DNA from: a bacterium
Lineage (GTDB): Bacteria > Planctomycetota > UBA1135 > GCA-002686595
DNA length: 36,751 bases
Assembly: GCA_030426785.1 (NCBI GenBank)
Contig: JAUHXY010000009.1
Coordinates: 1-36,751 of the forward strand
Direction of reading: 5' to 3'
A program made the position numbers and the translations under genes. Below are positions 1,953-19,863 of the stretch, piece by piece (position 1 is the stretch's first letter; every line of letters begins with the position of its first letter). Below the pieces are notes generated by a model. The model made no database searches. It had not been told where the DNA came from and worked only from the letters and a program-made list of their open reading frames with translations.

Positions 1953-4900
1953 CTAACGCTCCAAGGACTCGCTCGCCGCTAGCTCGACAGAGTACAGATC
2001 CAAAGGGCCCCGGCAGGCGAAACTCAGGGTAGGGGTTGTCGCAGGACGAGGCACAAAGGCCGGGCCCTTCAACTCGATCCCATCCAGCCGAATGGCCTTG
2101 AGCCGACCCCGTCGAGTCGAGGCCAAGGTTGAGACCTCGACCTCCAGGCGGTGGTAGCGTCCGGGCTCGAAACCACGGAAGTCGCCATAGGCCGAATCCG
2201 GCCCCTGTGCGAGGCGATCGATTAGGTCTTGGGGGTTTTCGAAGCCCCCGGTCATGCGGGAGGCCTTCCCATCGGAGAGGAAGACCAGCTGAAATCCGCC
2301 CACATGGACCAGCACGGGCTCCGCGGTGGCACCGTCAGGGATGCGGAACGTGAACGCAAAGCGCGTGGGCCGCTCCAATTCGAGCGGGCGCCCCAAGGGC
2401 AACACCATGCCGTGATTCCACCAATCGGCAGGAGCTTCGCCCTCGGGCGGCAGGCGGTGGCGTAGACGCCCTGGCTCGGCCTGGAAGGCACCCAGGTGCC
2501 AAGATTGCGGGTGGGCGTCGAAGCGCCAGCGCAGGCGCACGTCGCGCCTTGCAGCTAGCTCCGGCCCGCGATGCAGCACCTCGGCTTCGGGGTACAGGTC
2601 CGCCAGGGTGCGAATGCGCGGACTGGCGTGGATTTGCTCCCACAGGCCCTGCAAGTGGCCGCGCTGGGCCGCGGTCAAGCTGGGTTCGCGCAACAGGGTT
2701 CGGATCTCGCCTTTCCAGCGCTCCCGAGCGCCTCCACCACCCTCCACGTCGCGGGTCAGCGCAGCGATTTCGATCGCCAAGGCCTCAGGGCTCCGGCCGG
2801 TGCCCTGGGTGAGGTCGCGCAGAATCCGTTCGCGCAGATGAGCGACGAGCGGGTCCACGCTCGCCTCCCCCCTCGGCAGCGACTCCTGCGCCCATTTCCA
2901 CTCCCCCTCGTGATACAGGAAGAGCGACTTAGCCAAAGCGGCTTCGCCCGCGAGGACCTCGCTCTGCTCTGCCGTGCCGCTCGAAGGCATCCCATCGGCC
3001 AACCGCACCCAGTCTTCGGTCGCCAGCAGCGCGCCGCCCCGCTCGCGGGCTTGGCTCGGCAGCAGCCAGATTTGGGTGCGCTCTCCGCCGGCCCCATGAA
3101 GGAACGCGAAGCCCGAATCGAACACCTCCCCGGTCTGTACGAGCACTCCGCGCCGGCGGAAACCCTGCAGCAAGAACTCTTGCTCCCGACCGCTGTTCGA
3201 ATCGATGGCCCGGCGCACCAAGCCGGCGTATTGACGCAGGATCTGGGCTTCGCGTAGATCGCGCTGCATCTCGCCGAATACGGATACCCGCCAAGGGGAG
3301 TCCAATCGGTCGCTCCAGAGCTGCTCGGCTTGGGCGTACTGGCGGTCCCCCAGCAACTGCGCGGCGCGTTCCGCGTCTTGTTCGTATTTGTTGCGCGCGA
3401 CGGCGGTGCGCTGATGCTGCCCTTCTTGCTGCAAACGTGCTTTGGCGTCCGCCAGCCGACGCTGCCAATCGCGGGTCCAAGAATCGGGCACCTGCTCCCA
3501 GCGCAGATCCATACGCTCGGACGCCAAGTCGATGTCGGCCTGCAGAGCTACGTCCATGCCCTCGACGTGCTCGCTCTCGATGCGCTGCAACAGCGCCGGT
3601 TCGCGCTCTTCCAAAATGGTGATCAAACGCGTTTCCAAGCCTTGCCAACGGGCCTGCACCAAGTCCCGTTGCCCGGCGAGGCGTGGCAGGACCCACTCGC
3701 GCAAGCGCGCTTGCACCGTTTCCGGTGGCAGTCCGCGGGCGGTCTCGGCCATGGCGCTGAGGGCACCATCGATCTGCGGCGCCGCCAACTCCATCGCATC
3801 GCGGAAGCGACGCTGTTCCACGGCGAGGCGCACCGCCGGCTCGAGGGTTTCGGTCAACCATGTCAGGGTGCCTTGTTCGAGCACCTGCAGACGCCGCGCT
3901 AGGTCTTGCTCGACGAGGGCGGCCCGGTGGGCGTACCAGCGTTGGAATCCGCGCACCTCTTGCAGGTCCGGCAACTCGTTGGGATTGGGCAGGCCGACAA
4001 ACTGCAGCAGGCGGCCGGGAACCTCCTCCTCCAGGATGCGGTTGGCCTCCACCCAGGAACCTTCGCGCAGGGCCCTCTGCCAGCGCGGATCCAGCTCATC
4101 CATCAGGTCCTGCAACGCGGCGCTCAAGTCCCCCAAGACCTGAATGCGTAGGGTTTGGATGCGCCGTTCGGTTTGCGCGCGGGCGTTCGGATCCTTGGGT
4201 AGCGGCCACGTTTCCAAGCGCGAAAGGACCGCCAGCGGCTTGTGCCGGCCTTCGCGATAGGTTTCGGACAAAGCCTCCAGGGGGAAGCGTCCTGCGTTGG
4301 CATCATCGGGAGTTCCCGCGCGTGTCTCTCCTCCTCCACCCCAAAGGGCCCACGAACCGCCTCCTGCGAGCAGCAAGGCGGCCAAAGAGGCCAGCAACCA
4401 CCGGCGCCGCTGCTTGTGGGGATGGGCGAGCGGCTCCAGGCCCTCTCTGGTGACCTTGGGTGGACGGCGCTCCAACAAGCGTTGCAGGTCGGCCTTCAGC
4501 TCCTTGGGTTCCTGGTAGCGGCGCTCGAGATCGCGGGTCAAACAAGCGCGCAAGACGAGCACGAAAGAAGCGCTCAGGCCAGGGACGTGTTGGCGGGGAT
4601 CTTCGAGCGGGTCTTGCAGGACCGCGGAAAAGACTTCGGCCACGCTGGACCCGGAGAACGGCGGACGGCCGGTCACGGCGTGGTAAAGGGTCGCGCCCAA
4701 GGACCAGATGTCGGAGCGCACGTCCACTTTGGAGGAGTCGCGCGCCTGTTCGGGACTCACGTAGTGCGGCGTCCCCAGCACCCCCCCCGAACCGGTCAAA
4801 GACGGTTCATCGCGCGCGAAGGCCAAACCCAAGTCGGCGAGCAGGGCCCGTTCGCGCGGATCGATCAGGATGTTCGCGGGCTTGACGTCGCGGTGCACGA

Positions 4901-5321
4901 CGCCCACCTCGTGCAGGTGCTGCAGCGCGTCGGCCAGGGGAATGAACATGCGCAAAGCATCGCGCTCGTTCAAAGGGCCACGCTCCTCAATGCGCTCGGC
5001 GAGAGAAATGCCCTCGACGAGTTCCATGGCATACCACCAGCGCCCATCCGGCAGTTGGCCCATGTCGATCGGCGCGATGATGGCCGGGTGGGCCAAGCGA
5101 GCCGCCGTGCGCGCCTCGCGCCGAAAGCGCTCCACCGCTCGGGTGCTCTGCGCCAGGTCGGCACGCAAGACCTTGATCGCCACGGCGCGATCGATCACCT
5201 CCTGGACGCCGGAGTAAACCACTCCGCTCGCGCCGCGACCCAACATGCCCGCGATGCGATACCCGCCGATGTGCGGCAGGTCGATGGGTGCATCGGGCTT
5301 GCGACGAGTGTCCTTCGGCAT
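1953..5321 (-). CDS. Large membrane-anchored Ser/Thr protein kinase
   Basis: 1122 residues. The N-terminal eukaryotic-type (PknB/Hanks) kinase domain spans ~18-285, with a Gly-rich loop GRGASG (28-33), ATP lysine K50 in AIKVL, HRDVKPANIL (catalytic D145), DLG (metal-binding D163) and SPE (189-191). All key residues are present, so it should be active. One membrane segment (~308-327) follows a basic stretch, giving a cytoplasmic kinase and an ~790-residue exported part. That part is rich in charged helices (about 380-700, probably coiled coil). Its end (~930-1110) is beta-rich and resembles concanavalin/LamG-type sugar- or protein-binding domains, but this is a visual impression. There are no PASTA repeats. 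It probably senses something in the periplasm or cell envelope. Start is ATG at 5321. The radical SAM gene follows after 250 bp. Confidence 0.9.
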   Translation of the reverse strand: MPKDTRRKPDAPIDLPHIGGYRIAGMLGRGASGVVYSGVQEVIDRAVAIKVLRADLAQSTRAVERFRREARTAARLAHPAIIAPIDMGQLPDGRWWYAMELVEGISLAERIEERGPLNERDALRMFIPLADALQHLHEVGVVHRDVKPANILIDPRERALLADLGLAFARDEPSLTGSGGVLGTPHYVSPEQARDSSKVDVRSDIWSLGATLYHAVTGRPPFSGSSVAEVFSAVLQDPLEDPRQHVPGLSASFVLVLRACLTRDLERRYQEPKELKADLQRLLERRPPKVTREGLEPLAHPHKQRRRWLLASLAALLLAGGGSWALWGGGGETRAGTPDDANAGRFPLEALSETYREGRHKPLAVLSRLETWPLPKDPNARAQTERRIQTLRIQVLGDLSAALQDLMDELDPRWQRALREGSWVEANRILEEEVPGRLLQFVGLPNPNELPDLQEVRGFQRWYAHRAALVEQDLARRLQVLEQGTLTWLTETLEPAVRLAVEQRRFRDAMELAAPQIDGALSAMAETARGLPPETVQARLREWVLPRLAGQRDLVQARWQGLETRLITILEEREPALLQRIESEHVEGMDVALQADIDLASERMDLRWEQVPDSWTRDWQRRLADAKARLQQEGQHQRTAVARNKYEQDAERAAQLLGDRQYAQAEQLWSDRLDSPWRVSVFGEMQRDLREAQILRQYAGLVRRAIDSNSGREQEFLLQGFRRRGVLVQTGEVFDSGFAFLHGAGGERTQIWLLPSQARERGGALLATEDWVRLADGMPSSGTAEQSEVLAGEAALAKSLFLYHEGEWKWAQESLPRGEASVDPLVAHLRERILRDLTQGTGRSPEALAIEIAALTRDVEGGGGARERWKGEIRTLLREPSLTAAQRGHLQGLWEQIHASPRIRTLADLYPEAEVLHRGPELAARRDVRLRWRFDAHPQSWHLGAFQAEPGRLRHRLPPEGEAPADWWNHGMVLPLGRPLELERPTRFAFTFRIPDGATAEPVLVHVGGFQLVFLSDGKASRMTGGFENPQDLIDRLAQGPDSAYGDFRGFEPGRYHRLEVEVSTLASTRRGRLKAIRLDGIELKGPAFVPRPATTPTLSFACRGPLDLYSVELAASESLER

Positions 5322-8600: not shown

Positions 8601-9369
8601 CTGGGATGCCGACTTCGTGGCGGCCGGTCCGTACCTGATCGATACGATCGACCCGAGCAACCTGACCTTGGTCTCCTCGACCCTGACTCCTGGCGATTCG
8701 CAATGTGGGGTCGGTGTGACCGTGACCTGGTCTACGGGCTCGGACGCCCATTCGGGCATTGCTGGGTACGGGGCGAGTCTGAACACGAATCCGACCGCTG
8801 CGGCTCCGGCTGCTGTGACCACCACTTTGACTTCAGCGAACATCAATCTCCCGGTGGGTGGCAATTACTACCTGCACGTGCGGGCGATCGACAACGCTGG
8901 AAACGCGGGAGCCACGCTGCACTTGGGTCCCTTCACGCGCACGGCGGTATGTGGCGTGGCCTACTGCGCTGGCAACCTCAACTCGACCGGTTTCCCGGCC
9001 ACCCTGTACATCACGGGTAGCGATCGGGTCTCCGACAACGACTTGACCCTGAACGCGGAGAGCATGCCGCTCAACAACTTCGGGTACTTCATCTGCGGGA
9101 CCGCAGAGGGTCCGCCCATCGTACCTCCGGGCAGCCAGGGCACCTTCTGTTTGGGTGGAGCCTTCGGCCGCTACAACGCGATCTCCGAGATCAAGTTTAC
9201 CGGCGCGACCGGGGCCTTCGACCTGGACATCGACTTGACCTCGATGCCCACGAACCCCAACCAAGCCGTCATGGTGGGCCAATCCTGGAGCTTCCAGGCC
9301 TGGCACCGGGATCAGAACCCGTTCAACACCTCGAACTTCACCAACGGGGTCACCGTGACTTTCAAGTGA
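5638..9369 (+). CDS. Secreted S8 (subtilisin-family) serine protease, paralogue 1
   Basis: 1243 residues from the ATG at 5638, chosen because the paralogue at 12771 also begins MK and goes straight into a signal peptide (GILSLAAAAWAQ, cleavage after AWA). An ATG at 5629 would add only three residues. Residues ~110-325 form a long propeptide-like part with two similar alpha/beta modules. The S8 catalytic domain (~345-640) has the full triad: Asp362 in IVDSG, His398 in GHGTHVTG, Ser586 in GTSMSAPHVTG, with oxyanion Asn507. A P-domain-like beta region follows, then two Ig/FN3-like repeats (~905-1110), each with a VDNxxNW or IDNAGNAG signature. It ends in a ~130-residue Cys-containing domain shared with the paralogue. 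It should act outside the cytoplasm as an endopeptidase; substrate unknown. A terminator follows. Confidence 0.93.
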   Translation: MKSKYAYPLVGILSLAAAAWAQEANSADEAIPSTANRTLTPVTVTAGASLDDAQATALDRFDTEELEAKVAPVQLDDSVPLPIRAVVEEGVDGDRIVSPAKGDPFFLSFIAGPYTPPANELADPSMLTVQDRITDARPGNETYGMVMFQKRITEERIAQLKQMDCRILGFHPHYTLKVAIPMDRILDVSTLDFVRWVGTPRDWQKVHPSLRSATAGKASNELQDMYISVYESDMNENSTVERFGTYQSITPDHPEGFVDESEGDLRSKRFQSNGWMHQHLESLGLIIREYRPDIDVFVVSAPVASIEAIVAQDYVQFVEEVPHDEMHAAPVHDESIPMVAGDQTRINYDGSTNSVAHVGIVDSGVETAHTDINVFGRGWNCTTESSPWDDNANGGGGHGTHVTGTILGNGTVEADHAGMAPGLATWSLDQAYYNYRRFPNPCSVSLSTILNQMDTVVGAGTVPHVVNHSWGSTLSGGAVPTGTEADARTVDNHVFNTGQVQVWSAGNTPTTLGIQSAAKNALTVGNALDYFEGTLGEPEPGDMWTTSGRGPTSDNRWKPNLNAPGRIVSSCAANNNSGYLGYSGTSMSAPHVTGLIAQLVDHYAFLQDREPAEIAARLMATAQTNDNVAISVASDAHLDNFGAGRINAYRAHWDSSGWDSLNWSPVVSSGNSTFGDFTVPANTSRLVIVMHYNEVAASAGAGSALVNDWDLWIDRDPIDPASNTGEYFVQQSSVDNTEMRIITNPAAGPWRWKAHPQSTTSSMHLGVTVLMVTDDVTPTNTVTVTASDMYVQPGEQLDVDVNVAAGDYFSAATFLDIDGNGRTVHSKATTMADGTASDLSASANPDDYITLGDVRVGQSRNATYTISFPTEGNKTQTIQTRSENAAEVNPSVAIVVDGTEPGAVSNLTSTSHTPSVWSNDPTVDMTWTAASDDRSGVQGYGTFISGTATGSPGAVLDIGAVTSDTTPALATTSGGHYYKIRTVDNSDNWDADFVAAGPYLIDTIDPSNLTLVSSTLTPGDSQCGVGVTVTWSTGSDAHSGIAGYGASLNTNPTAAAPAAVTTTLTSANINLPVGGNYYLHVRAIDNAGNAGATLHLGPFTRTAVCGVAYCAGNLNSTGFPATLYITGSDRVSDNDLTLNAESMPLNNFGYFICGTAEGPPIVPPGSQGTFCLGGAFGRYNAISEIKFTGATGAFDLDIDLTSMPTNPNQAVMVGQSWSFQAWHRDQNPFNTSNFTNGVTVTFK

Positions 9370-9451
9370 TGGATAGGGAACGGTCCATGATGCGCGAGCC
9401 AAGCTTCGGACAAGATTCCTTAGCCTAGCTCCGCTGGGCGGACCTTTCGAA

Positions 9452-9505
9452 GGCCCCCGCAGCGTCGCGCCATCCGGGGTGGCGGTGCGGGGGCCTCCTC
9501 TTATT
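9452..9505 (+). terminator. Intrinsic terminator after protease 1
   Basis: GGCCCCCGCA (9452-9461) pairs perfectly with TGCGGGGGCC (9486-9495). An inner 5-bp stem CGCCA/TGGCG (9468-9472/9480-9484) closes the loop. A pyrimidine tail TCCTCTTATT follows. It lies 83 bp after the protease stop and before the converging sbtB end at 9545, so it may stop transcripts from both sides. Confidence 0.75.
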
Positions 9506-9544
9506 GAGAGCCTTGTCCGCTAGGGGTGCTCGTTGGGAACACGC

Positions 9545-9838
9545 TCAATGCTTGAGCCAATGGGCATCGCTGATCAGGCACATGCCCCCATGGCGCGCCA
9601 ACACCGGACGCAAGTCCGCGACGAGAGCGTCCAACGCGTTGGGTTCACACGTGGTGATGAACACGACGTTGGAGGCTACGCCGGTCAACTCGTCGTCGCG
9701 ACGCAAGCCACGATCCCCAGAGCCGGAAGCCCCGCGAATGCGCGTCCAGCCCTGCAGCCCATGCTGGGCGAGCAGGTCGGTGACCACTTCGCTCCTAGGA
9801 GCTTCGATCACAATCTCGAGGCGTTTGACCGGAATCAT
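9545..9838 (-). CDS. sbtB: PII-like signalling protein, SbtB type
   Basis: 97 residues from the ATG at 9838. A start at 9850 would add four residues, but 9838 gives an ATGA overlap with the stop of sbtA, typical of translational coupling. The sequence shows the ferredoxin-like PII pattern: an N-terminal strand (KRLEIVIEAP), helix and GLQGWT turn, a flexible Gly/Arg-rich T-loop region (GASGSGDRGL), then VVFITT and a final helix and strand. In cyanobacteria SbtB binds adenyl nucleotides and blocks or tunes the bicarbonate transporter SbtA. The neighbour supports the same role here. The C-terminal Cys pair (CGPxGC) of some SbtB proteins is absent, so no redox C-loop is expected. It is the last gene of purE-purK-sbtA-sbtB. 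Confidence 0.75.
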   Translation of the reverse strand: MIPVKRLEIVIEAPRSEVVTDLLAQHGLQGWTRIRGASGSGDRGLRRDDELTGVASNVVFITTCEPNALDALVADLRPVLARHGGMCLISDAHWLKH

Positions 9839-10818
9839 GAAACCCTCCAAAGGCTTTCGATCACGCTCATGTACAGGGGAATCCCCAGCGCGATGTTAAA
9901 GGGAAAGGTCACCGCCAGCGCCATGGGCAAGAAGATGCTGGGGTTGGACTGCGGCAAAGCGCCACGCACGGCAGCGGGCACCGCGATGTAACTGGCGGAG
10001 GCGCACAAAACGGTGAAAAGCAGGGCGTCCCCAGGCTGCAGCGACATGACCATCGCCAAGGGGATCGCCAGGGAGGCCAAAACCAAGGGCGCGATCAAGG
10101 CGAACAAAACCAACAGGAGGCCCGACTCTCGGAACGCGCTGAGGCGCCTCGCAGCGATCAATCCCATGTCCAACAGGAAAAGACACAGGACACCCTTGAA
10201 GGGTTCTTTGGCGAAAGGAGCGATGCTCACCCAGCCTTCTTTGCCCACGATGGCGCCGATGACGAGGGAGCCCAAGAGCAGAAACACCGAACCGTTGAGG
10301 AAGGACTCGCGCAGGAGCGGCCCGAGCGCGTGCGCGCCCTGTCCCGAAGATGAGGACTGGCCGGCCCGGCGCGCCAACACGACGGCGGCCAAAATCGCCG
10401 GGGACTCCATCAGGGCCATCGCAGCCACCATGGACCCGGACCATGCGATCGCGCGGTCGTCGAGGAAGCTGCATGCCGTGACGAAGGTCACCGCCGAAAT
10501 GGACCCGTAGGTGGCCCCGACCGCGGCAGCGTCCGAGATCCCAAGCCGCTTGCGCAGTAGGAAAAACACCGCGATCGGGACCAGGGCGCTCAATGCGACC
10601 CCAGCGATCAGGGGTTGAAAGGTCTGCCAATCGAGGCCGGCTTGCGACAACTCCACGCCCCCGTGCATGCCGATCGCAAACAGCAGGTACAAGGAGAGCG
10701 TGCGCGTCATCGCCTGGGGAAACTCCAAGTCCGAGCGCACCAGCGTCGCCACCATCCCCATCACGAAGAAGAGGATGGACGGGGTCATCAGGTTTTCCGA
10801 TACCGCCCCCCAATCCAT
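9835..10818 (-). CDS. sbtA: Sodium-dependent bicarbonate transporter, SbtA family
   Basis: 327 residues, almost entirely hydrophobic, with about ten membrane segments in two inverted halves and a hydrophilic central loop (RRAGQSSSSGQGAHA). Family signatures recognisable against cyanobacterial SbtA are GSISAVTFVTA in the first half and SNPSIFLPMALAVTFPF in the second; these are the pseudo-symmetric Na+/HCO3- binding segments. It should import bicarbonate with sodium across the inner membrane. The ATG (10818-10816) shares its A with the TGA of purK (TGATG), and its own TGA overlaps the sbtB start (ATGA). Co-translation with both neighbours is therefore likely. The purK neighbour uses bicarbonate as a substrate, which suggests the purpose of the operon. 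Confidence 0.85.
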   Translation of the reverse strand: MDWGAVSENLMTPSILFFVMGMVATLVRSDLEFPQAMTRTLSLYLLFAIGMHGGVELSQAGLDWQTFQPLIAGVALSALVPIAVFFLLRKRLGISDAAAVGATYGSISAVTFVTACSFLDDRAIAWSGSMVAAMALMESPAILAAVVLARRAGQSSSSGQGAHALGPLLRESFLNGSVFLLLGSLVIGAIVGKEGWVSIAPFAKEPFKGVLCLFLLDMGLIAARRLSAFRESGLLLVLFALIAPLVLASLAIPLAMVMSLQPGDALLFTVLCASASYIAVPAAVRGALPQSNPSIFLPMALAVTFPFNIALGIPLYMSVIESLWRVS

Positions 10819-11972
10819 CAGCGCACCCCCTTAGCCGCCGCCAACGAGTCGCGTGCGGCGAGCACGCGCCTTTCCGCCCCTTGCACGGAGGAATCGGTCA
10901 CCACCAGGTGACCCATTTTTCGTCCCGCGCGCGCCTGCCCCTTACCATACAGGTGGAGGTGCACCCCCGGATCCTGGAGCGCGGCGGCCCAGTTCGGCTC
11001 GCCGCCCTGCCACAGGTCGCCTAAGAGGTTCGCCATGGCCGCAGCGGGCACCTTGCGCTCGGTCGAGCCCAACGGCAAACCGCAGATCGCACGGACCTGT
11101 TGTTCGAACTGACAGCACGCGTGCGCATCGATGGTCAAGTGCCCCGAGTTGTGCGGCCGGGGAGCCAACTCGTTCACTAGCAGGCTGCCATCTCGTTGGA
11201 CGAAAAACTCGATGCACAGGACCCCGACCACTTCCAACTGGGTGAGGATCTGCCGAGCCATGTTGCAGGCGTCCGACAACACTGCCTCCGGCAACGGAGC
11301 GGGTGACAGCGAGACGTCGAGGATGTGATGGCGGTGGTGGTTCAAGCTGGGCTCGAACAAGGCGACCTGCCCGTCCAGCCCGCGGGCGCCGACCACCGAA
11401 ATCTCGCATTGGAAGTCGATGAATTCCTCGAGGACGGTGGGGCGTTGCCCTAACTCCGAGAAGGCGGCTTCGAGATCCGCAGCGCTCTCGACGCGACGTT
11501 GGCCCTTGCCGTCGTACCCCCAAGCGCACGATTTGAGGACCCCAGGAAAGCGCGCTTCTTGGGCGATCGCACCAAGATCCTCAGCGGACTCCACGAGATG
11601 AAACGGCGCGACCGGAATGCCCAAGGACCGCAGGGTTTGCTTCTCTCGGGCGCGGTTTTGCGTCGTATGCAACAGGGCGCCCGCCGGCCGAACCGGAGCC
11701 CACTCAGCCGCCGCTTCGAGGGTGGCCGAGGGGATGTTTTCGAACTCAATGGTCAGGACATCGCACGTTTGCGCAAAAGCGCGTACGGCATCTAAGTCGT
11801 CGTAGTCAGCGCGATGCACGCGCGAAGCGACCTCTCCGCAAGGGTGGCTTTCCTCGGGAGCGAAGACGCTCACCCGATAGCCCATGCGTAGGGCAGCCAG
11901 GGCAAACATGCGCCCAAGTTGCCCCCCTCCGAACATGCCCAGGGTCGCCCCCGGAAGTATGGGAGCGCTCAT
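10818..11972 (-). CDS. purK: 5-(carboxyamino)imidazole ribonucleotide synthase PurK
   Basis: 384 residues, an ATP-grasp enzyme. It makes N5-CAIR from AIR, ATP and bicarbonate in de novo purine synthesis. Visible signatures: the N-terminal nucleotide fold [17 protein letters not shown], the ATP-grasp lysine segment [13 protein letters not shown], the metal/ATP segment [13 protein letters not shown], and the C-terminal [15 protein letters not shown] typical of PurK. The start is the ATG at 11972, whose ATGA overlaps the purE stop. An upstream in-frame extension would run backwards through purE and is not credible. Length and motifs are normal, so it should be active. Confidence 0.96.
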
Positions 11973-12463
11973 TCCAGTTCCGAATTCAGTGCGGCGTCCC
12001 TCTGCTGATCGTGGAACGCTTGGAGGCGTGTCCGCAATTCCGCATCGCGCGTCGCCAGCAGGCGCACGGCGAACAGCGCGGCATTCTTGGCACCTGCCTC
12101 CCCGATGGCCATCGTGGCCACCGGCACGCCCCCCGGCATTTGCACGATCGACAGCAAGGAATCGACGCCTCGCAGAACGCGGCTTTCCACAGGGACCCCA
12201 ATCACAGGCAGCGGAGTCCATGCCGCCAACATGCCGGGCAGGTGGGCCGCCCCTCCCGCCCCGGCGATGATCGCTTGGATTCCCCGGCCTTGCGCTTCCT
12301 GTGCGAAGGACCGCAGGAGTTCAGGGGTGCGGTGGGCCGAGACGACCCGCGCCTCCCGAGGGACCTCGAAGTCATCGAGCAGCTCGGCAGCGTGGCGCAT
12401 GGTCGGCCAGTCCGACCGGCTACCCATCACAATGGCAACCTGGGGCGGCGGGTTGGGGTTCAT
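11969..12463 (-). CDS. purE: N5-carboxyaminoimidazole ribonucleotide mutase PurE (class I)
   Basis: 164 residues from the ATG at 12463. It converts N5-CAIR, the unstable product of PurK, to CAIR. Motifs: [10 protein letters not shown] near the N-terminus, VSAHRTPE (the active-site His), [11 protein letters not shown] and [11 protein letters not shown]. The presence of PurK shows it is the mutase (class I) and not the direct AIR carboxylase. A longer frame begins at 12550, but its extra 29 residues are Pro/Arg-rich and unlike the family. It is the first gene of the purE-purK-sbtA-sbtB operon, and its 4-base overlap with purK suggests coupling. Confidence 0.95.
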
Positions 12464-12770
12464 CGGGGCTGGGGGCTCGGGTTTTGGTCTGGGGCGCACG
12501 CGAGGGCTCGGAAACGTAAGGCACGGTCGATGGCCGGAAAAGCAAACCATGCAAAAACCGCTTGGAGCTGCGTTGAGGAACGGGTCGAGCCCCTTTCTTG
12601 ACCATGCAGTCCACTATCCTCCGTGCGTCCTTGGAATGACTCCCATTTCTCGGCTCGCACGGCCCCCTCAACATTTTCGGCCTTTTCTTGAGAGGATTTT
12701 CGGGCGCTTTCCGCGGTCAGGATAGAGGGTCGATTTCCGACCCGCCCTACCTCTGCCATTCCATCCAGAC
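12464..12770. promoter_or_regulatory. Divergent promoter region of purE operon and protease 2
   Basis: No convincing gene in 307 bp. It separates the start of the purE operon (minus) from the second protease (plus), so it should contain both promoters. The stretch 12670-12710 is T-rich compared with its surroundings. No clear -35/-10 pair, purine-type riboswitch core or PurR-like palindrome was found by eye. Confidence 0.4.
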
Positions 12771-15700
12771 ATGAAACCTCTCGCTACCGCCCCGTTCGTC
12801 GGGGTTCTCTCCCTCGCCGCGATGGCCTGGGCGCAAGAAGGCTCGGAGCCGAATCCGCCCACGCCGATCAAGAGCGTCACCCCCATCACCACCTCCACCC
12901 AGGACCCGGCCCAAGAACGACCGACCCGCCCCGACCAACCCTTCGGGGAGGCGGAAGCGGAAATCGTCCCCGGCAAGCCCTCGGACAGCGTTCCGCTTCC
13001 CAACGTGGCGGTCACCGAAACCGGTCCCGATGGCGACCGCATCGTCACCCCGGCGAGCGGCAACCCCTACTTCCTTTCCTTCGTGGCCGGACCCTACAGC
13101 CCGCCCGAATCGGAACTGGTTGACCCGAACATGTTGGTCCAACGGTCTTGGACCGACCTGCGGCCGACCAACCACACCTACGGCATGGTGATGTTCCAAA
13201 AGCGCATCACCGAGGAGCGTCTCAACACCCTGAAAGGCATGGGTTGCCGGGTGCTGGAGTTCCACCCCCACTACGCGGTGAAAGTAGCGATCCCCGAAAA
13301 CCGCATTCTGGATGTGTCGACGCTGGACTTTGTGCGCTGGGTGGGGCAACCGCGCGAATGGCAAAAGATCCACACGGCTTTGTCCGTGGATCTGGAAGAT
13401 TTGGCGGACAACGATGCGATCGAGATTTACCTCTCAGTTTTTGAGTCCGATCTGAATGAAGACTCCACCTTCACCCCCTTTGGCTCCGTGACCCACATCG
13501 GCCCGGGCATCGAAGGGGAAATCGCCTACGAAGGGGAAGACGATCCCCGCTCGAAAATTGTGCAGTCCAACGGTTGGATGCAGCAGGCGCTCGAAGCCCG
13601 AGGCGTGACCATCCACGAGTATCGCCCGGACATTCACACATTCCGGGCTACCATCACGAAGGCGCAATTGGCGGACTTGACACCGCTCGACTTCGTGCAA
13701 TTCATCGAACCGGTTCCCACCGACGGCGTGTTCGCCACGCCGATCCACGATGAGTCGATCCCGATGGTCTTCGGGGACGTGACCCGTGCCTCCTGGGACG
13801 GCTCAGCCAACTCGCGCGCTTCGGTCGGTATCGTCGACTCGGGCGTGGAGAATGCCCACCAGGACATTTCCGGCATCTTCGGATGGGGTTGGAACTGCAC
13901 CACCGAAACGTCTGCGTGGAACGACACCGAGAATGGCACCAACGGGCACGGAACCCACGTGACCGGCACCATCCTCGGCGATGGATCCGTAGAAGCGGAT
14001 CACACGGGCATGGCGCCTGGCGTGGCTCGCTTTAGCTCGAACTACAGCTACTACAACTACCGCAAGTACCCCAGCCCGTGTTCGGTGGGTTTGAGCAGCA
14101 TCACCAGCACCATGTCCACCCCGGTGGGCTCTGGGGTGATCCCGCACGCCGTCAACAACTCCTGGGGTTCTTGGTTCACCAACGGCACCTTCCCGAGCGG
14201 AACGGAAGCCGATGCGCGTACCGTGGACAACGTGGTCTACAACGAAGGCCAAGCCTGGGTGTTCTCGACGGGCAACTTCTCGACCCGCAACATCTCGATC
14301 CAATCCGCCGCCAAGAACTCCATCGGCGTCGGCAGCATCGTGGACTACGACGAGTCCTCGGTCGGCACGGTCGGTGATGTTTGGTCGAGTTCCGGTGCGG
14401 GACCGACGGCGGACGGCCGTTTCAAGCCGAACGTGGTCGCTCCGGGTCGCTGGGTGAGCAGTGCGCTCGCGAACAACAACACGGGCTATGCCGCCTACAA
14501 CGGTACCTCGATGGCCTCCCCCCATGTGACGGGACTCATCGCTCAGTTGGTGGACCACCACGCCTTCTTCGACGGCTACTTGGCCCATCGCTTGAACGCG
14601 CACCTGATGGCGACCGCTACCGCTCGCGACGACGCGGCCATCCGCACGCCGAGCAGCGCTGTGGGTAGTCACCTCAACACGCAAGGTGCCGGTCGGATCA
14701 ACTCCTACCGGGCCCACAACGCGAACTCCAACTGGGGTTGGTTGAGCTGGTCCTACACGCAAGGTAGCGGCCAGTTCGCCGGCGCGAACTTCACCTTGCC
14801 CGCCAACACCACCCGCTTGGTGGCGGTGATGCACTACACCGAAGCGGCCGCTTCCTCCGGAGCCGGCCAAGCGCTGGTCAACGATTTCGACTTCACCCTG
14901 GACCAACCCCCCATCGACCCGGGCAACGACACCGGCGAGTGGTTCGCCCAGCACAGCTCCGTGGACAACACCGAGATTCGCGTGCTGACCAACCCGCTCG
15001 AAGGGGAATGGCGCTGGAAGATCCACCCGGACTCCACCAGCAGCTCGGTCCTCGTCGGCGTCACCATCCTGTGGCACGTCGGCGACACCACCCCGACCGC
15101 GAACGTGAGCTTGTCCGCTTCGGACAGCTACGTGCAAGTGGGCGAAGTCTTTGAAGTGACCGCCACGGTCGACCCCAACGACCAACTCGCCTCGGCGGTG
15201 CTGGTCGATCTGGGCGGCTCGATGTCGTACGACGGTCGTTCGCGCACCCTCGGCGATGGCATCGTGTCGGACCTGTCGCAAAGTGGCAACTCCACCGACA
15301 AGATCACCCTCGGCGATGTGTATGAATTCCTGCCCCGCTCGGGTTCCTGGGACATTCACTACAACTCCCAAGGCGTGAAGACCATCAGCCTGAGCGCTAC
15401 CTCGGACAACATGGTCAATGACACCGACTCCATCCAGGTGACGGTCGACAGCACGCAACCCACCGCGGTGAGCAACCTGACGTCTCCGAGCCACACCCTC
15501 AACCAGTGGAGCAACGACCCCACCATCCAGTGGACCTGGACGGCGGCGAGCGATGCCCTTTCCGGTTTGCAGGGTTACGGCATCTTCGAGAGCACGACGG
15601 GCGGCGAACCCGGCAATTTCTTGGATATCGGCACCGTGACCTCCTACACGAGCGCTGCCTATGCGAGCTCGACCTCGGGTCGTTACTTCGCCATCAAGTC

Positions 15701-16487
15701 CGTGGACAACGCGGACAACTGGGATACCGATTGGGAAGTCGATGGACCCTACTTCATCGATACCGTCAACCCGGGCATTCCGGCCTACGTCGACTCGACG
15801 GTTCCCCAAGGCGCGTCCACTTGTGAAGATGCCTTCACGGTCCAATGGTCGGTCCCGACGGACATCCACTCCGGAGTGGCAGGCTACTCGCTTGCAGTGA
15901 CGAGCTCCCCGGGCACGATCCCGAACGCCTCCATCGACGTGGCAGTTCCTCAATCGATGCTCAACTTGGTTCCTGGCACTTGGTACTACCACGTGCGCGC
16001 GGTCGACAACGCCGGGAACGTGGGAGACACGGCCCACTTCGGACCTTTCATTCGGACTGCGGACTGTGGAACTCCGTTCTGCAACCCCGGCAACCCGAAC
16101 TCGACGGGCTTCCCCGCGAACCTGTACATCACGGGTAGCGATATCGCTTCGGCCAACGACCTGACCCTCAACGCCGAGGGCATGCCGTTGAACAACTTCG
16201 GGTACTTCATCTGTGGAACCGCGCAAGGTCCGCCGATCACCCCTCCGGGTAGCCAAGGTGTCTTCTGCTTGGGCGGAGCCTTCGGGCGCTTCAACGCGAT
16301 CCCGCAGATCAAGTTCACCGGCGCGACCGGGACCTTCGATCTGACGATCGACTTGACGAGCATGCCGACCAACCCGACCCAGGCGGTGATGGCCGGTCAA
16401 TCTTGGAGCTTCCAGGCTTGGCACCGGGACCAAAACCCCTTCAACACCTCGAACTTCACCAACGGGGTCACCGTGACCTTCAAGTGA
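12771..16487 (+). CDS. Secreted S8 (subtilisin-family) serine protease, paralogue 2
   Basis: 1238 residues, with the same architecture as the protease at 5638. It has a signal peptide (GVLSLAAMAWAQ), a Pro/Thr-rich linker, a propeptide-like part with two similar modules (~135-325), and an S8 domain with Asp356 (IVDSG), His393 (GHGTHVTG), oxyanion Asn502 (STGNFS) and Ser580 (GTSMASPHVTG). A beta region, two Ig/FN3-like repeats and the shared C-terminal ~130-residue domain follow. All catalytic residues are present. The catalytic regions of the two paralogues look roughly two-thirds identical by eye, but the terminal domains differ at only about 16 of ~132 positions, and the last 25-30 residues are identical. 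The ATG at 12771 fits the signal peptide well; no strong ribosome-binding site is visible. A terminator follows at 16549. Confidence 0.94.
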   Translation: MKPLATAPFVGVLSLAAMAWAQEGSEPNPPTPIKSVTPITTSTQDPAQERPTRPDQPFGEAEAEIVPGKPSDSVPLPNVAVTETGPDGDRIVTPASGNPYFLSFVAGPYSPPESELVDPNMLVQRSWTDLRPTNHTYGMVMFQKRITEERLNTLKGMGCRVLEFHPHYAVKVAIPENRILDVSTLDFVRWVGQPREWQKIHTALSVDLEDLADNDAIEIYLSVFESDLNEDSTFTPFGSVTHIGPGIEGEIAYEGEDDPRSKIVQSNGWMQQALEARGVTIHEYRPDIHTFRATITKAQLADLTPLDFVQFIEPVPTDGVFATPIHDESIPMVFGDVTRASWDGSANSRASVGIVDSGVENAHQDISGIFGWGWNCTTETSAWNDTENGTNGHGTHVTGTILGDGSVEADHTGMAPGVARFSSNYSYYNYRKYPSPCSVGLSSITSTMSTPVGSGVIPHAVNNSWGSWFTNGTFPSGTEADARTVDNVVYNEGQAWVFSTGNFSTRNISIQSAAKNSIGVGSIVDYDESSVGTVGDVWSSSGAGPTADGRFKPNVVAPGRWVSSALANNNTGYAAYNGTSMASPHVTGLIAQLVDHHAFFDGYLAHRLNAHLMATATARDDAAIRTPSSAVGSHLNTQGAGRINSYRAHNANSNWGWLSWSYTQGSGQFAGANFTLPANTTRLVAVMHYTEAAASSGAGQALVNDFDFTLDQPPIDPGNDTGEWFAQHSSVDNTEIRVLTNPLEGEWRWKIHPDSTSSSVLVGVTILWHVGDTTPTANVSLSASDSYVQVGEVFEVTATVDPNDQLASAVLVDLGGSMSYDGRSRTLGDGIVSDLSQSGNSTDKITLGDVYEFLPRSGSWDIHYNSQGVKTISLSATSDNMVNDTDSIQVTVDSTQPTAVSNLTSPSHTLNQWSNDPTIQWTWTAASDALSGLQGYGIFESTTGGEPGNFLDIGTVTSYTSAAYASSTSGRYFAIKSVDNADNWDTDWEVDGPYFIDTVNPGIPAYVDSTVPQGASTCEDAFTVQWSVPTDIHSGVAGYSLAVTSSPGTIPNASIDVAVPQSMLNLVPGTWYYHVRAVDNAGNVGDTAHFGPFIRTADCGTPFCNPGNPNSTGFPANLYITGSDIASANDLTLNAEGMPLNNFGYFICGTAQGPPITPPGSQGVFCLGGAFGRFNAIPQIKFTGATGTFDLTIDLTSMPTNPTQAVMAGQSWSFQAWHRDQNPFNTSNFTNGVTVTFK

Positions 16488-16548
16488 TGCTTCGTTCTTA
16501 GTCGAGCGGCCAACAACCTGGTTCTTCAGGTGCGGCGCCGCTCGCCGC

Positions 16549-16600
16549 GCGCCCTCGCTCCCCCTCCCTGGAGGTCAGAGCGAGGGCGCCTCCATTCTCG
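16549..16600 (+). terminator. Intrinsic terminator after protease 2
   Basis: A perfect 12-bp inverted repeat, GCGCCCTCGCTC (16549-16560) with GAGCGAGGGCGC (16578-16589), is followed by a pyrimidine-rich tail (CTCCATTCTC). It stands 62 bp after the protease stop, in the same relative place as the terminator of paralogue 1. Confidence 0.7.
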
Positions 16601-16689
16601 GTAGGTCGAAGCCCCCGAAAGTGAACGACCAGGGACCGGAAGGGCCCCTGCCGGCGGTTGCGGGCATCTCTCAAAAAAAAACAAGGAAA

Positions 16690-16795
16690 ACTGAGGCCTC
16701 GATGCCTCGCTTTGCGCATGTACGTGTGCTGGAGGACTTGCGTTCTCCAAAGGCGGGTGGCGTATCTTGGCAGGGCGTCGTCCGCCTTCTTTTTG
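16690..16795 (+). ncRNA. Candidate small RNA made of four hairpins ending in a T-run
   Basis: Four stems follow one another: GAGGC/GCCTC (16693-16708), GCGCA/TGTGC with one wobble (16714-16729), GGAGGAC/GTTCTCC with a TTGC loop and one G-T pair (16731-16748), and AAGGCGG/CCGCCTT (16750-16756/16782-16788). The last is followed by CTTTTT, as in an intrinsic terminator. An A-rich tract precedes the set. No reading frame here looks coding. It is not a known RNA class that I recognise. It lies beyond the protease 2 terminator, so its own promoter would be needed. Confidence 0.4.
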
Positions 16796-16800
16796 TCTCC

Positions 16801-17059
16801 ACACAACCGTGCGCGGGGCGGCTCTTCTCCACCGGCTCCCAAGAGCGCGCCCGCGGTTTCGAGCCCCCAGGTCTCGTTGGGCTCGTCCAATTTCTTGGAC
16901 AATCCTGGGGGGCGAGAGGGCCTGGATTGCGCTGAAGGTGTTGGCGGGAGAGATTTCCGACCTACCCGGTGGCTCGCCAAGTTCCTCGGGCTCTCAGATC
17001 GGCCCTTCGCCAAGGATTGGATAGAAGCGCCCCCCGCAGCGATGCGGGGGGCTTTTTTT
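16801..17059 (+). ncRNA. Candidate structured RNA with long-range closing stem and terminator
   Basis: Successive structures: a 14-bp hairpin with two single-base bulges (16812-16855), GAGCCC/GGGCTC (16861-16884), and GTCCAA/TTGGAC with a TTTC loop (16885-16900). A long-range stem then joins 16901-16922 (AATCCT plus GGCGAGAGGGCC) to 17001-17018 (GGCCCTTCGCC plus AGGATT), about 17 pairs with one bulged A and a small internal loop. Inside it TTGGCG (16941-16946) pairs with CGCCAA (16975-16980), leaving an open bubble of roughly 18 and 20 bases. A strong terminator closes the unit. Closing stem, central bubble and apical stem recall 6S RNA, but I cannot identify conserved 6S sequence. tmRNA, RNase P and SRP RNA signatures are absent. 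Confidence 0.4.
17029..17059 (+). terminator. Textbook rho-independent terminator
   Basis: GCCCCCCGCA (17029-17038) pairs with TGCGGGGGGC (17043-17052) around a GCGA tetraloop, followed by seven T (17053-17059). It is the clearest terminator in the window, yet no plus-strand gene lies within 540 bp upstream. This is the main reason to suspect a non-coding transcript here. Confidence 0.9.
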
Positions 17060-17126: not shown

Positions 17127-19106
17127 CTAGGAATCGAGAACGATGCCGTACTTCTCCAACTTGCGCTGCAGGGCAAAGCGAGAGAGCCCCAAACTGCGAG
17201 CCGCGCGGCTCTTGTTGCCGCCCGATTCTTTGAGCGCAGCTTCGATGGAGCGCTTTTCCAGGTCTGCCACAAGCTCACGGATGTCGCCCCCTTCTGCCGC
17301 CAGCAAAGCCGCCGCTTGGGCGGTATCGGAGCTGTCGCCCCGAGACCCTTCTCGCACGGCCAAGGATAGATGCTCGGGCAAAACCACATCGCTGGCGAGC
17401 ACCACTAGCCGGCGCATTTCGTTCTCCAGTTCGCGGATGTTGCCCGGCCAAACGTGGCGATCGAGCACTTCCAGCACCTCATGGGGCAGGTGCGGGACGG
17501 AGCGCTCGGCCTCCTTGGCCGCGCGGGCGAGCATATGCTGCGCTAGGAGGGGCACGTCCCCGCGCCGATCGCGCAGGGGCGGCAGCTTCAAGGAGAGCAC
17601 GGCGATGCGGTAGTACAGGTCTTCCCGGAACTTGCCGGCCGAGACGAGTTCTTGCAGGGAACGGTTGGAGGCCGCGACCAAGCGCACGTTGACCTTGCGC
17701 ACCTCCTCGCTGCCCAAGGCGCGCACCTCGCCCTCTTGGAGCACCCGCAGAAGCTTCTTTTGCATCTCCGGGCTCATGTCCCCCACCTCGTCGAGGAACA
17801 GGGTGCCCCCGTCCGCTTGCTCGAGCAGCCCGCGCTTGTTCTTGTAGGCGCCGGTGAAGGCCCCGCGCACGTGACCGAACAGTTCGGACTCCAGCAGGGT
17901 GTCGGGCAGCGCGGCGCAGTTTTCGGTCACGAAGGGCCGGGACTTGCGAGCGCCGTTGAAGTGCACCGCTCGCGCAAAGAGCTCCTTCCCAGTCCCGCTC
18001 TCCCCCTCGATCAAGACGGGCAGGTCGCTTTCGATAAAGCGATCGAGCTGGGCAAACACCGTCACCATCGCTTCGCTCGACCCGACGATCGAGGAATAGT
18101 CGTAGCGTCCCCGCTCACGATCCAACTCCGAGCGCACGACGTCCAGGGCGTTGCCTTGCTCTTGCACGCGCCGGCCGAGTTCCTCGTTGAGCTTCTCCAC
18201 CTCTTGGTGGGCGGCTTCCAAAGAGCGCGCTTTCTCCTTGAGGGCCTCGCGGATGCGCGCGTTGTGGATGGCGGTCGCGGCATGGGAGGCCAAGAGCTCC
18301 CCCGTTTCGATCTGGATCTCCCCGAAAGCTCCGTCGGTCAGGCGGTTGTCGATGAACAGCACGCCTTCGATACGGCCATCCACCGCGATCGGCAGCCCCA
18401 TGACGGAGCGCAAGCGTAACTCCTCAACGCTGGCCATCGCATCAAAACGCTCGTCCTGGGAGGCATCCACCGACACCAGTGCGCGCCCCTCGGACAACAC
18501 CTTGTTGACCAACCCCATGGACATGCGGCCTTGGGGAACCACGATGTCGCTTCCGTCGAATCGTCGGGCGACGCGGACCTGAATGTCTTCCAACTCTGCA
18601 CCGATCTGGTCCGGTTGATCCTCCAGCAAGACCAAGAAGCCGCGCTCCCCGCCAACCAGGGCCAGCGCCGAATCCACGATGCGACGCAGCAACGGCTGCA
18701 GCTCCTCTTCTTGGGCCAACGAGCGCGCGATGTTGGAAAACGTTCGCAAGCGTTCTTCGGGGCCTTTGGGTTCTACGGACAAAGTGTCCAACCCGGACAG
18801 AGAGGCCGCTTCCCCCGATGTGCCCTCCCAAGATTCCAGTACGAGGCGCACGCCCCCAATCTCGACCTGGTCCCCCACGCGCAGGCGGGCTTCGCGGGTC
18901 GGGCGGCCATTGATCCGGCTGCCGTTGGCGCTGTTTTGGTCGACGTACCAAACCTCTTGGCCGCGCAGCTCGACCCGGCCGTGATGGCGGGAGACCTTGG
19001 GCACCTTCAGGCTAATTTCGCATTCGGTGGCTCGACCGATGTGGATGGGGGTCTCGGAGAACTCCAAGGAGGAGGCGCCTTGGTCCTGATAGACTGTCCA
19101 TTTCAT
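17127..19106 (-). CDS. Sigma54-dependent transcriptional activator with FHA and GAF domains
   Basis: 659 residues from the ATG at 19106, which begins directly before the FHA domain; a frame continuing to 19253 adds 49 unlikely residues. FHA domain at ~20-90 with GRATECE, SRHHG and NSANGSRING, the set that binds phosphothreonine. GAF domain ~125-285, then a coiled coil ~285-335 and the AAA+ domain ~340-575: Walker A GESGTGKE (368-375), GAFTGA loop (415-420) that contacts sigma54, and Walker B GGTLFLDE (433-440). A Fis-type helix-turn-helix lies at ~628-655. It should open sigma54 promoters when a phosphorylated partner or a GAF ligand signals. The FHA domain suggests input from a Ser/Thr kinase such as the one at 1953-5321. 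Targets are unknown; I saw no -24/-12 promoter by eye. Confidence 0.95.
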   Translation of the reverse strand: MKWTVYQDQGASSLEFSETPIHIGRATECEISLKVPKVSRHHGRVELRGQEVWYVDQNSANGSRINGRPTREARLRVGDQVEIGGVRLVLESWEGTSGEAASLSGLDTLSVEPKGPEERLRTFSNIARSLAQEEELQPLLRRIVDSALALVGGERGFLVLLEDQPDQIGAELEDIQVRVARRFDGSDIVVPQGRMSMGLVNKVLSEGRALVSVDASQDERFDAMASVEELRLRSVMGLPIAVDGRIEGVLFIDNRLTDGAFGEIQIETGELLASHAATAIHNARIREALKEKARSLEAAHQEVEKLNEELGRRVQEQGNALDVVRSELDRERGRYDYSSIVGSSEAMVTVFAQLDRFIESDLPVLIEGESGTGKELFARAVHFNGARKSRPFVTENCAALPDTLLESELFGHVRGAFTGAYKNKRGLLEQADGGTLFLDEVGDMSPEMQKKLLRVLQEGEVRALGSEEVRKVNVRLVAASNRSLQELVSAGKFREDLYYRIAVLSLKLPPLRDRRGDVPLLAQHMLARAAKEAERSVPHLPHEVLEVLDRHVWPGNIRELENEMRRLVVLASDVVLPEHLSLAVREGSRGDSSDTAQAAALLAAEGGDIRELVADLEKRSIEAALKESGGNKSRAARSLGLSRFALQRKLEKYGIVLDS

Positions 19107-19239
19107 AGGGCGTGTCGGGGGGCAGTCCGCCCACGCGAGGGGGAGAAGGGCGGGATGTTCCGGACGAGGCGGTCCTAACACGGCAGCCTGCCCCCTCCCA
19201 CGATACCGGCCGCTACCCCCCAAGTTACACACCAATCGA

Positions 19240-19863
19240 ATGGAGCCAGGCAATCCGCAGCCCCCGTCTTCGAACGAGAAGGACCTCCCCAGGGGTCCCC
19301 AACCCGATCAACAGCCCCCGATGGCTGGAGGCTCTGGGATGGCGGAAGGCTCTGGAATTCCTGGGGGCTCTGGCCCGGCAGAGAAATCAGGGCAGGCTGG
19401 CCCGGCAGGGCAGCCCTGGTACCGGAATGGCCTGCGCTTCGCCTGCACGCAGTGCGGGCGCTGCTGTCAGAACCATGGCGAGTATGAGTACCTCTACCTG
19501 ACCACTGCCGATGTGCACGCCATGGCGGCGGAGCTGGGCTTGAGCGAAGCCGCCTTCCGCAGCCGCTACACCGCCCCTTCCGATGGCTGGACCATCCTGC
19601 GGGTGGAGGGCCCCCACTGCACTTTCCTAACCCCGGAGGGCCAGTGCTCGGTGTACGAAGCGCGCCCCATGCAGTGCCGTACGTGGCCCTTCTGGCACGA
19701 AAACCTGACCCGCGAGGCCTGGACCGGCCCAGTGCAAGCGATCTGCCCGGGTCTGAATCAGGGGCCGCTGCACTCGCGCGAAGAGATCGAACGCATCGCC
19801 GACGCGAACGAAACGTGGTACGCCACCGATGGCGGGCACGAACCCGCTGCGGAGCCGGAATAG
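19240..19863 (+). CDS. YkgJ-type cysteine-cluster protein
   Basis: 207 residues. The core begins with FACTQCGRCCQNHG (Cys69, Cys72, Cys75, Cys76) and continues with PHCTFL, GQCSVYEARPMQCRTWPF and AICPG. Together these supply the seven or eight cysteines of the zinc- or iron-chelating YkgJ (UPF0153) family, whose biochemical role is not firmly known. The first ~58 residues are not part of the family: they are Pro/Gly/Ser-rich and contain a three-fold 18-bp direct repeat (19327-19373) encoding GSG units. The true start may be internal, but no better ATG lies close to the core. It is transcribed divergently from the sigma54 activator, 133 bp away. Confidence 0.85.
   Translation: MEPGNPQPPSSNEKDLPRGPQPDQQPPMAGGSGMAEGSGIPGGSGPAEKSGQAGPAGQPWYRNGLRFACTQCGRCCQNHGEYEYLYLTTADVHAMAAELGLSEAAFRSRYTAPSDGWTILRVEGPHCTFLTPEGQCSVYEARPMQCRTWPFWHENLTREAWTGPVQAICPGLNQGPLHSREEIERIADANETWYATDGGHEPAAEPE
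19327..19373 (+). repeat. Three-fold 18-bp direct repeat encoding Gly-Ser-Gly units
   Basis: The core GGCTCTGG recurs with an exact 18-base period inside the N-terminal extension of the YkgJ-type gene. This gives a six-residue repeat of the form (G/A)(E/G)GSGxx, likely a flexible linker that can vary in length by slippage. Confidence 0.7.

What the first reader, a model, noticed from the sequence alone, without database searches (positions are those of the whole stretch)
16801..17059. Structured RNA with a 6S-like outline between protease 2 and the sigma54 activator
A perfect terminator with a T7 tail has no gene in front of it. Upstream lie a 14-bp hairpin, two 6-bp hairpins, and a ~17-bp long-range stem joining 16901-16922 to 17001-17018 that encloses a bubble and an apical stem. 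Such nested pairing over 260 bases is unlikely by chance. The outline resembles 6S RNA, but the size and sequence do not let me name it.
Basis: partly seen in the sequence, partly recalled or inferred. Interest (0 to 1): 0.55.

Follow-up and report, generated by a model that had tools for sequence, protein, structure and literature searches.

The report
New two-hairpin planctomycete small RNA
The 260-base structure that was flagged folds no better than chance and is not 6S RNA, but a few bases before it lies an apparently unnamed small RNA of roughly 70 bases, with two hairpins and an unchanging loop, found once in each of the four genomes examined from this planctomycete genus.

Summary
The terminator at 17029-17059 is genuine. 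Without it the region has no excess structure (z +0.38, 127 of 200 shuffles fold as well). It is not recognisable in the three same-genus genomes and reaches no Rfam gathering score. It is not 6S: three of four genus genomes carry a 154-155-nt 6S-like RNA elsewhere.

The real structured RNA lies just upstream, at 16728-16796 (+). It is 69 nt: an 8-bp hairpin, then an 11-bp hairpin with an invariant 13-nt loop UAUCUUGGCAGGG, then a U-rich tail. It occurs once in each of four genus genomes. All 76 pair cells are standard on this strand, 64 of 76 on the other. Identity is 86% inside and 28% just after it. A promoter-like block precedes it. Among 154 genomes of the class only these four reach E 1e-4.

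Most likely it is a Hfq-independent small RNA acting through its invariant loop. Conservation and structure are shown; transcription, partner and function are inferred. Target tests were negative.

The parts
16692..16719 (+). promoter-like block: TGAGGC (TGACGG in the three other genomes), 16-nt spacer, GCGCAT; the spacer length is the same in all four genomes
   Evidence: ungapped identity 64% in the 20 nt before the RNA, 45% in the 21 nt around the first box, 36% further upstream. No sigma-70-like site by consensus scan. The -35/-10 reading is inferred
16728..16796 (+). conserved two-hairpin small RNA (core)
   Evidence: z -3.7 to -5.7 in the four genomes; model R1 (built from these four) scores 91.7-98.3 bits in them, next best 30.0
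16730..16749 (+). hairpin 1: 8 bp (16730-16737 with 16742-16749), 4-nt loop
   Evidence: 32 of 32 cells paired, three pairs change on one side
16752..16786 (+). hairpin 2: 11 bp (16752-16762 with 16776-16786), terminator-like stem
   Evidence: 44 of 44 cells paired, three pairs change on one side and two on both sides
16763..16775 (+). invariant 13-nt loop TATCTTGGCAGGG of hairpin 2
   Evidence: identical in 4 of 4 genomes
16787..16796 (+). T-rich tail of the RNA (probable intrinsic terminator)
17029..17059 (+). second intrinsic terminator with T7, not seen at the same place in relatives; probable back-up terminator
   Evidence: the back-up role is inferred
17127..19253 (-). FHA-GAF-sigma54 activator-Fis HTH regulator, convergent neighbour of the RNA
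1953..5321 (-). Ser/Thr kinase, 51% identical to the kinase that stands beside the RNA in G001 (G002 and G003 copies are 67% and 69% identical to that of G001) but 11.4 kb from the RNA here

Best explanation
Window 16728-16796 (+) is a small non-coding RNA gene of about 70 nt, with its own upstream promoter and an intrinsic terminator formed by hairpin 2. Its 13-nt apical loop, exposed on the terminator hairpin, is the recognition site and most likely base-pairs with trans-encoded mRNA; hairpin 1 protects the 5' end. It acts without Hfq. Shown: conservation, single copy in each genome, structure, strand, sharp edges. Inferred: transcription, start point, loop pairing, targets, role of hairpin 1.
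For: The loop-plus-closing-pairs pattern occurs once in each of the 4 genus genomes; of the 97 other genomes examined one has a 1-mismatch match, without the flanking stems. Folding z is -3.74, -5.68, -5.34 and -5.05, with 0 of 200 shuffles as good in each. 76 of 76 pair cells are standard, with 11 further pair types and two pairs changed on both sides. The opposite strand keeps only 64 of 76, so the selected molecule looks like a plus-strand RNA with G-U pairs, not a DNA cruciform and not the kinase leader. Mean ungapped identity is 86% inside, 100% in the loop, 80% in the hairpin-2 stem, 64% in the 20 nt just upstream, 29-36% further upstream and 25-28% in the 100 nt after it. A TGACGG/TGAGGC - 16 nt - GCGCAT-like block precedes it in all four. 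Hfq and CsrA were found in 0 of 4 genomes while the controls rang in 5 and 3 of 14. The RNA is kept although the kinase beside it in three genomes lies 11.4 kb away in the window, which argues for a function not tied to that gene.
Against: Only four sequences, all from draft genomes. Covariation is modest: 28 of 500 shuffles reach the observed percentage paired and score, 50 of 500 the count of double changes, 146 of 500 the number of pair types, and every change in paired columns is a transition. No transcript data. No sigma-70-like promoter. The loop complement is not enriched in the four genomes: 9 one-mismatch sites other than the RNA genes versus 7 for the reversed control. The loop does not pair with the kinase start regions better than simple shuffles (28 to 92 of 300 as good). 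No accepted homologue outside the genus.
Confidence: 0.55

Rival explanations
1. The RNA is a protein-binding RNA: its invariant loop, not an mRNA match, is held by an unknown RNA-binding protein, which it sequesters or guides.
For: The loop is invariant, extra pairs inside it (U-G, U-G, C-G, U-A) are predicted in all four, and no enriched antisense sites were found.
Against: The classical partners CsrA and Hfq were not found in 4 of 4 genomes. No protein candidate was tested.
Confidence: 0.22
2. It is a cis-acting element of the activator/kinase locus: a convergent or antisense RNA that ends or dampens transcription between the activator, the thioredoxin-like gene and the kinase.
For: In G001, G002 and G003 the RNA is encoded opposite to the kinase, loop 334-592 bases from its start codon, and in G001 and G002 also opposite to the activator; activator and kinase lie on the same contig in many family members.
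Against: In the window the kinase lies 11.4 kb away and the RNA is kept; the stretch between RNA and activator is not conserved; an antisense role needs no invariant loop. The RNA was not found in 23 kinase loci of other genera nor beside activator relatives.
Confidence: 0.12
3. The reader's element 16801-17059 is itself a species-specific structured or 6S-like RNA ending at the T7 terminator.
For: A strong T7 terminator with no known gene in front of it.
Against: No excess structure without the terminator (z +0.38); not recognisable in relatives; no Rfam hit at gathering score; 6S-like RNAs elsewhere in 3 of 4 genus genomes.
Confidence: 0.05
4. Both hairpins at 16728-16796 are merely the tail of a longer 3' UTR (of the subtilase in the window), acting as terminator only.
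For: A hairpin followed by T-rich sequence downstream of a plus-strand gene.
Against: In G001-G003 the large ORF on that side is the divergent kinase, so no upstream gene on that strand was seen to terminate. A terminator needs no invariant 13-nt loop and no first hairpin; a promoter-like block precedes it.
Confidence: 0.08

Closest known systems
6S RNA (Rfam RF00013)
   Same: Non-coding, structured, single copy.
   Different: 6S is a 150-200-nt long stem with a central bubble (recalled; the model has 187 positions); this is 69 nt with two hairpins. The genus has 6S-like RNAs elsewhere (G000 C212:2345-2498, G001 C671:17414-17568, G002 C40:1725-1879; 32-40 bits, below the 46.4 cut-off).
Trans-encoded bacterial sRNAs with an exposed conserved recognition segment and intrinsic terminator, such as AbcR1/AbcR2 of alphaproteobacteria (PMC5461406, search listing and start of abstract only) and the C-rich-loop staphylococcal RNAs (recalled)
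   Same: Short intergenic RNA, own terminator, conserved unpaired segment.
   Different: No match to any Rfam sRNA family over 16728-16796; the loop is G-rich rather than C-rich, so it would not simply mask ribosome-binding sites; no Hfq gene found.
CsrA-sequestering RNAs (RsmY/CsrB type; recalled)
   Same: Hairpins with conserved loop sequence.
   Different: CsrA not found in 4 of 4 genomes; the invariant hairpin-2 loop has no GGA.
Rhodopirellula-1 motif (Weinberg 2010, PMC2864571; table row seen)
   Same: Listed as a candidate RNA of Proteobacteria and Planctomycetes.

Membership tests
6S RNA (RF00013) | Covariance-model score at or above 46.4 bits | tested here: not met
   No match in the window at gathering score; the only match in the own genome at E 0.001 is on C212, 32.2 bits.
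6S RNA (RF00013) | Long closing stem, central bubble mimicking an open promoter, about 150-200 nt (recalled) | tested here: not met
6S RNA (RF00013) | RNA polymerase binding and pRNA synthesis | not testable with these tools
   Needs an experiment.
Any Rfam 15 family | Match at gathering score | tested here: not met
   0 matches in the window and in four loci around the RNA. At E up to 5 there are 10 matches: nine cover the 17029-17059 terminator, one (PreQ1) lies at 16654-16690; none covers 16728-16796.
Intergenic trans-acting small RNA | Conserved structured RNA with compensatory or pair-preserving change | tested here: met
   76 of 76 cells paired, two double-changed pairs, strand-specific; support limited by four sequences.
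Intergenic trans-acting small RNA | Own intrinsic terminator | tested here: met
   11-bp stem followed by T-rich tail in 4 of 4; termination itself not tested.
Intergenic trans-acting small RNA | Own promoter | tested here: inconclusive
   Conserved block with constant 16-nt spacing in 4 of 4 but no sigma-70 match.
Intergenic trans-acting small RNA | Base-pairing targets | tested here: inconclusive
   No enriched or shared loop-complement sites; no genome-wide target prediction was possible.
Intergenic trans-acting small RNA | Expression | not testable with these tools
   No transcriptome is held.
Hfq-dependent sRNA | Hfq encoded in the genome | tested here: not met
   PF17209: 0 of 4 genus genomes (64-89% complete), controls rang in 5 of 14.

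The most novel reading that the evidence does not exclude
A genus-specific small RNA that works in a lineage without Hfq and CsrA, through a strictly invariant 13-nt loop carried on its terminator hairpin, with a dedicated non-sigma-70 promoter, and that was born beside (and may tune) a kinase / FHA-sigma54 activator signalling locus. It would be a lead to the unknown RNA-regulation machinery of these planctomycetes.
Probability: 0.2. Interest if true: 0.6.

Novelty: new member of a known kind. Interest (0 to 1): 0.38.

Why it matters
Few small RNAs seem to be catalogued for the PVC group: a table passage of one review gives 8 for it against 345 for Proteobacteria (PMC9029176, passage; the table header was not shown and I take these as numbers of sRNAs). 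This one is a compact RNA with clear borders, a fixed strand and an invariant loop, in bacteria where neither Hfq nor CsrA was found, so loop recognition can be tested directly. It also corrects the reading of the flagged region.

Tried and rejected
6S reading: rejected.

Region 16801-17059 as decayed thioredoxin gene: the HMA-thioredoxin protein of G002 matched a remnant in G001 (28 aa, E 0.001) but nothing there in the window. A DNA comparison with the three relatives gave only short scraps, best 16 bases, E 0.026. Region as protein gene: three ORFs, no Pfam match up to E 0.1; other protein libraries were not tried.

DNA element, REP or mobile repeat: single copy per genome, strand-specific G-U pairs, no match in phage or plasmid records. 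25 viral contigs contain the 15-mer, but in those 25 loci the model finds only two matches of 14.0 bits that cover the loop alone.

Homologues in other genera: 15 weaker matches of 20.3 to 30.0 bits (two of them lie in genus genomes G000 and G002) were looked at. Many are GC-rich terminator-type hairpins. Three share part of the loop: L137 (UGGCAGGG), L140 (UCUUGGCAGGG) and L141 (CUUGGGAGGG, one change, two hairpins and a T-rich tail); L139 shares much of hairpin 1. Their per-genome E-values are 0.0038 to 0.018, so with 81 genomes searched about one such match is expected by chance. In the six loci tested (L226 = contig of L141, L137, L140, L139, L135, L145) no relative of the activator, kinase, thioredoxin or subtilase lies nearby. 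I do not accept them, but distant kinship of these is not excluded; sister genomes could not be searched, the cap being used. L059 and L058 (15.2 and 13.5 bits), downstream of activator relatives, do not fold into the two hairpins. In 27 kinase loci only the G001, G002 and G003 copies score, plus one 12.1-bit match.

Promoter regulon: the block was found at the RNA in three genomes (the window's own copy is too diverged for the pattern) and at three other places, two of them near-identical in G000 and G001; not followed up. Loop targets: nine one-mismatch complement sites, none looking to me like a shared start-region target; only the pair with the same site was compared for orthology. Kinase start regions: no better than mononucleotide shuffles; activator start regions were paired in two genomes without a shuffle control.

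Literature: searches 'Planctomycetes' with '6S RNA', 'small RNA / covariance model / noncoding RNA', 'sRNA / intergenic / transcriptom', and 'invariant loop' with sRNA terms listed no paper whose title or abstract start names this RNA. These are listings of a partial library, in part capped; only passages of PMC9029176 and PMC2864571 were read.

Full report
WHAT WAS CLAIMED. The terminator is real (17029-17052 stem, T7 to 17059; z -4.88). The nested structure is not more than chance: z -1.18 with 24 of 200 shuffles as good for the whole, z +0.38 with 127 of 200 once the terminator is left out, z -0.72 with 41 of 200 for the long-stem part. The minus strand is similar (z -1.43, 14 of 200). The arm 16900-16909 has three possible partners. 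Rfam gives nothing at gathering score. At E up to 5, nine of ten matches cover the terminator and the tenth lies at 16654-16690. Three ORFs across the region have no Pfam match.

NEIGHBOURHOOD AND ORGANISM. The window's nearest named relatives are planctomycete MAGs. The activator at 17127-19253 is 75-79% identical in the three other genomes of the genus, and 58% and 53% (best segment) in Poly30 and Pla86. It carries FHA, GAF, sigma-54 activator and Fis-type HTH domains; the gene to the left is a subtilase.

WHAT IS THERE. The 17-base loop pattern occurs exactly once in each of the four genus genomes; of 101 genomes searched with one mismatch allowed, the only other match (G049) lacks the stems. 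The aligned core is 69 nt without gaps, window 16728-16796. Each copy folds on its own into the same two hairpins, z -3.74 to -5.68, 0 of 200 shuffles as good in each.

STRUCTURE EVIDENCE. All 76 cells (19 pairs x 4) are standard pairs, 8 pairs vary, two are changed on both sides; sliding the partner by 1-3 columns drops pairing to 43-59%. The shuffle control is only moderately exceeded (28 of 500 for percentage and score, 50 of 500 for double changes, 146 of 500 for pair types), as expected with four sequences. Random transitions in the same number would keep all pairs in 4057 of 200000 trials for G000 against G001; the other five comparisons, which are not independent, give 5357 to 64158 of 200000. 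Read on the other strand only 64 of 76 cells pair, because many tolerated changes are G-U: selection appears to act on a plus-strand RNA. Mean ungapped identity is 0.86 inside, 1.00 in the loop, 0.80 in the hairpin-2 stem, but 0.28 and 0.25 in the two 50-base stretches after it. Upstream it is 0.64 in the 20 bases just before, 0.45 in the next 21, then 0.36 and 0.29.

PROMOTER AND TERMINATOR. Immediately upstream the genomes have TGACGG (TGAGGC here), 16 nt, then GCGCAT, CCGCAT, GCGCAT or GCGCAC. No sigma-70 consensus site is found. I infer an own promoter for another sigma factor. Hairpin 2 is followed by T-rich sequence in all four, so it is probably also the terminator.

DISTRIBUTION. Model R1, built from the four copies, scores them at 91.7-98.3 bits; in 81 genomes of the family the next match has 30.0 bits. 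I looked at all 15 weaker rows and accept none, though three (L137, L140, L141) share part of the loop and distant kinship is not excluded. In 154 genomes of the class only the four reach E 1e-4 (stricter filters, can lose weak matches). No phage or plasmid record matches.

SYNTENY. In G001, G002 and G003 the loop lies 592, 385 and 334 bases from the start codon of a Ser/Thr kinase and the RNA is encoded opposite to it; the activator lies on the other side in G001 and G002, while G003 has contig breaks. In the window the related kinase (51% identical over its length) is 11.4 kb away, with other genes in between, and the RNA is kept. In G002 a thioredoxin-like gene stands between RNA and activator, in G001 a scrap of it, in the window none that I can detect.

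6S. RF00013 rings below its cut-off at one place in G002 (40.0 bits), G001 (36.2) and G000 (32.2) and not in G003. The three are alike and share a long interrupted stem in which 5 of 46 pairs are changed on both sides. The genus thus probably has a 6S RNA on another contig.

MECHANISM. Shown: a conserved, strand-specific two-hairpin RNA, one copy per genome, with an invariant loop. Inferred: that it is transcribed alone, and that the loop is the contact site. A loop kept letter for letter while the stem below it differs by 20% on average (27% at most) points to sequence-specific contact. Hfq and CsrA models hit 0 of 4 genomes, the genomes being 64-89% complete, so I favour Hfq-independent pairing with mRNA (about 0.55) over an unknown protein partner (about 0.22). 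Results against: complement sites are not enriched (9 versus 7 in the control), and kinase start regions pair no better than shuffles.

VERDICT. The flagged structure is largely ordinary spacer plus a terminator. Beside it lies a small RNA that I did not find in Rfam or in the paper searches. It is a new member of a known kind of molecule, with function unproved.

Noticed in passing
G000 C212:2345-2498 (-), locus L016; also G001 C671:17414-17568 (L155), G002 C40:1725-1879 (L154): Sub-threshold 6S RNA candidates (32-40 bits, cut-off 46.4), conserved in three genomes with five doubly changed pairs; probably the genus' real 6S RNA, below Rfam's cut-off.
   Followed up: partly
window 1953-5321 (-) and 5383-16487: The Ser/Thr kinase that neighbours the small RNA in three relatives lies 11.4 kb away here, with a bicarbonate-transporter-like gene, a PurK-like gene, a subtilase and two ORFs without Pfam match in between: a rearrangement or insertion beside the RNA.
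   Followed up: partly
window 16549-16589 (+): Perfect 12-bp inverted repeat shortly after the subtilase stop codon with only a weak T tail; probable terminator of that gene. The stretch 16480-16727 folds better than shuffles (z -2.71, 0 of 200).
   Followed up: no
G001 C197:6108-6139 and G000 C346:5881-5912: Near-identical copies of the promoter-like pattern at another place in two genomes, not checked for whether they lie in a coding region.
   Followed up: no
L141:1501-1572 (G074 C69:2092-2163), L140:1501-1580 (G081), L137:1501-1533 (G103): Weak model matches in other genera (22.5-25.1 bits) whose hairpin loops share 8-11 bases, or 10 with one change, with the invariant loop; L141 also has a first hairpin and a T-rich tail. 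Chance or distant relatives.
   Followed up: partly
genus genomes G000-G003: No Hfq (PF17209) and no CsrA (PF02599) match in any of four genomes, 64-89% complete.
   Followed up: partly
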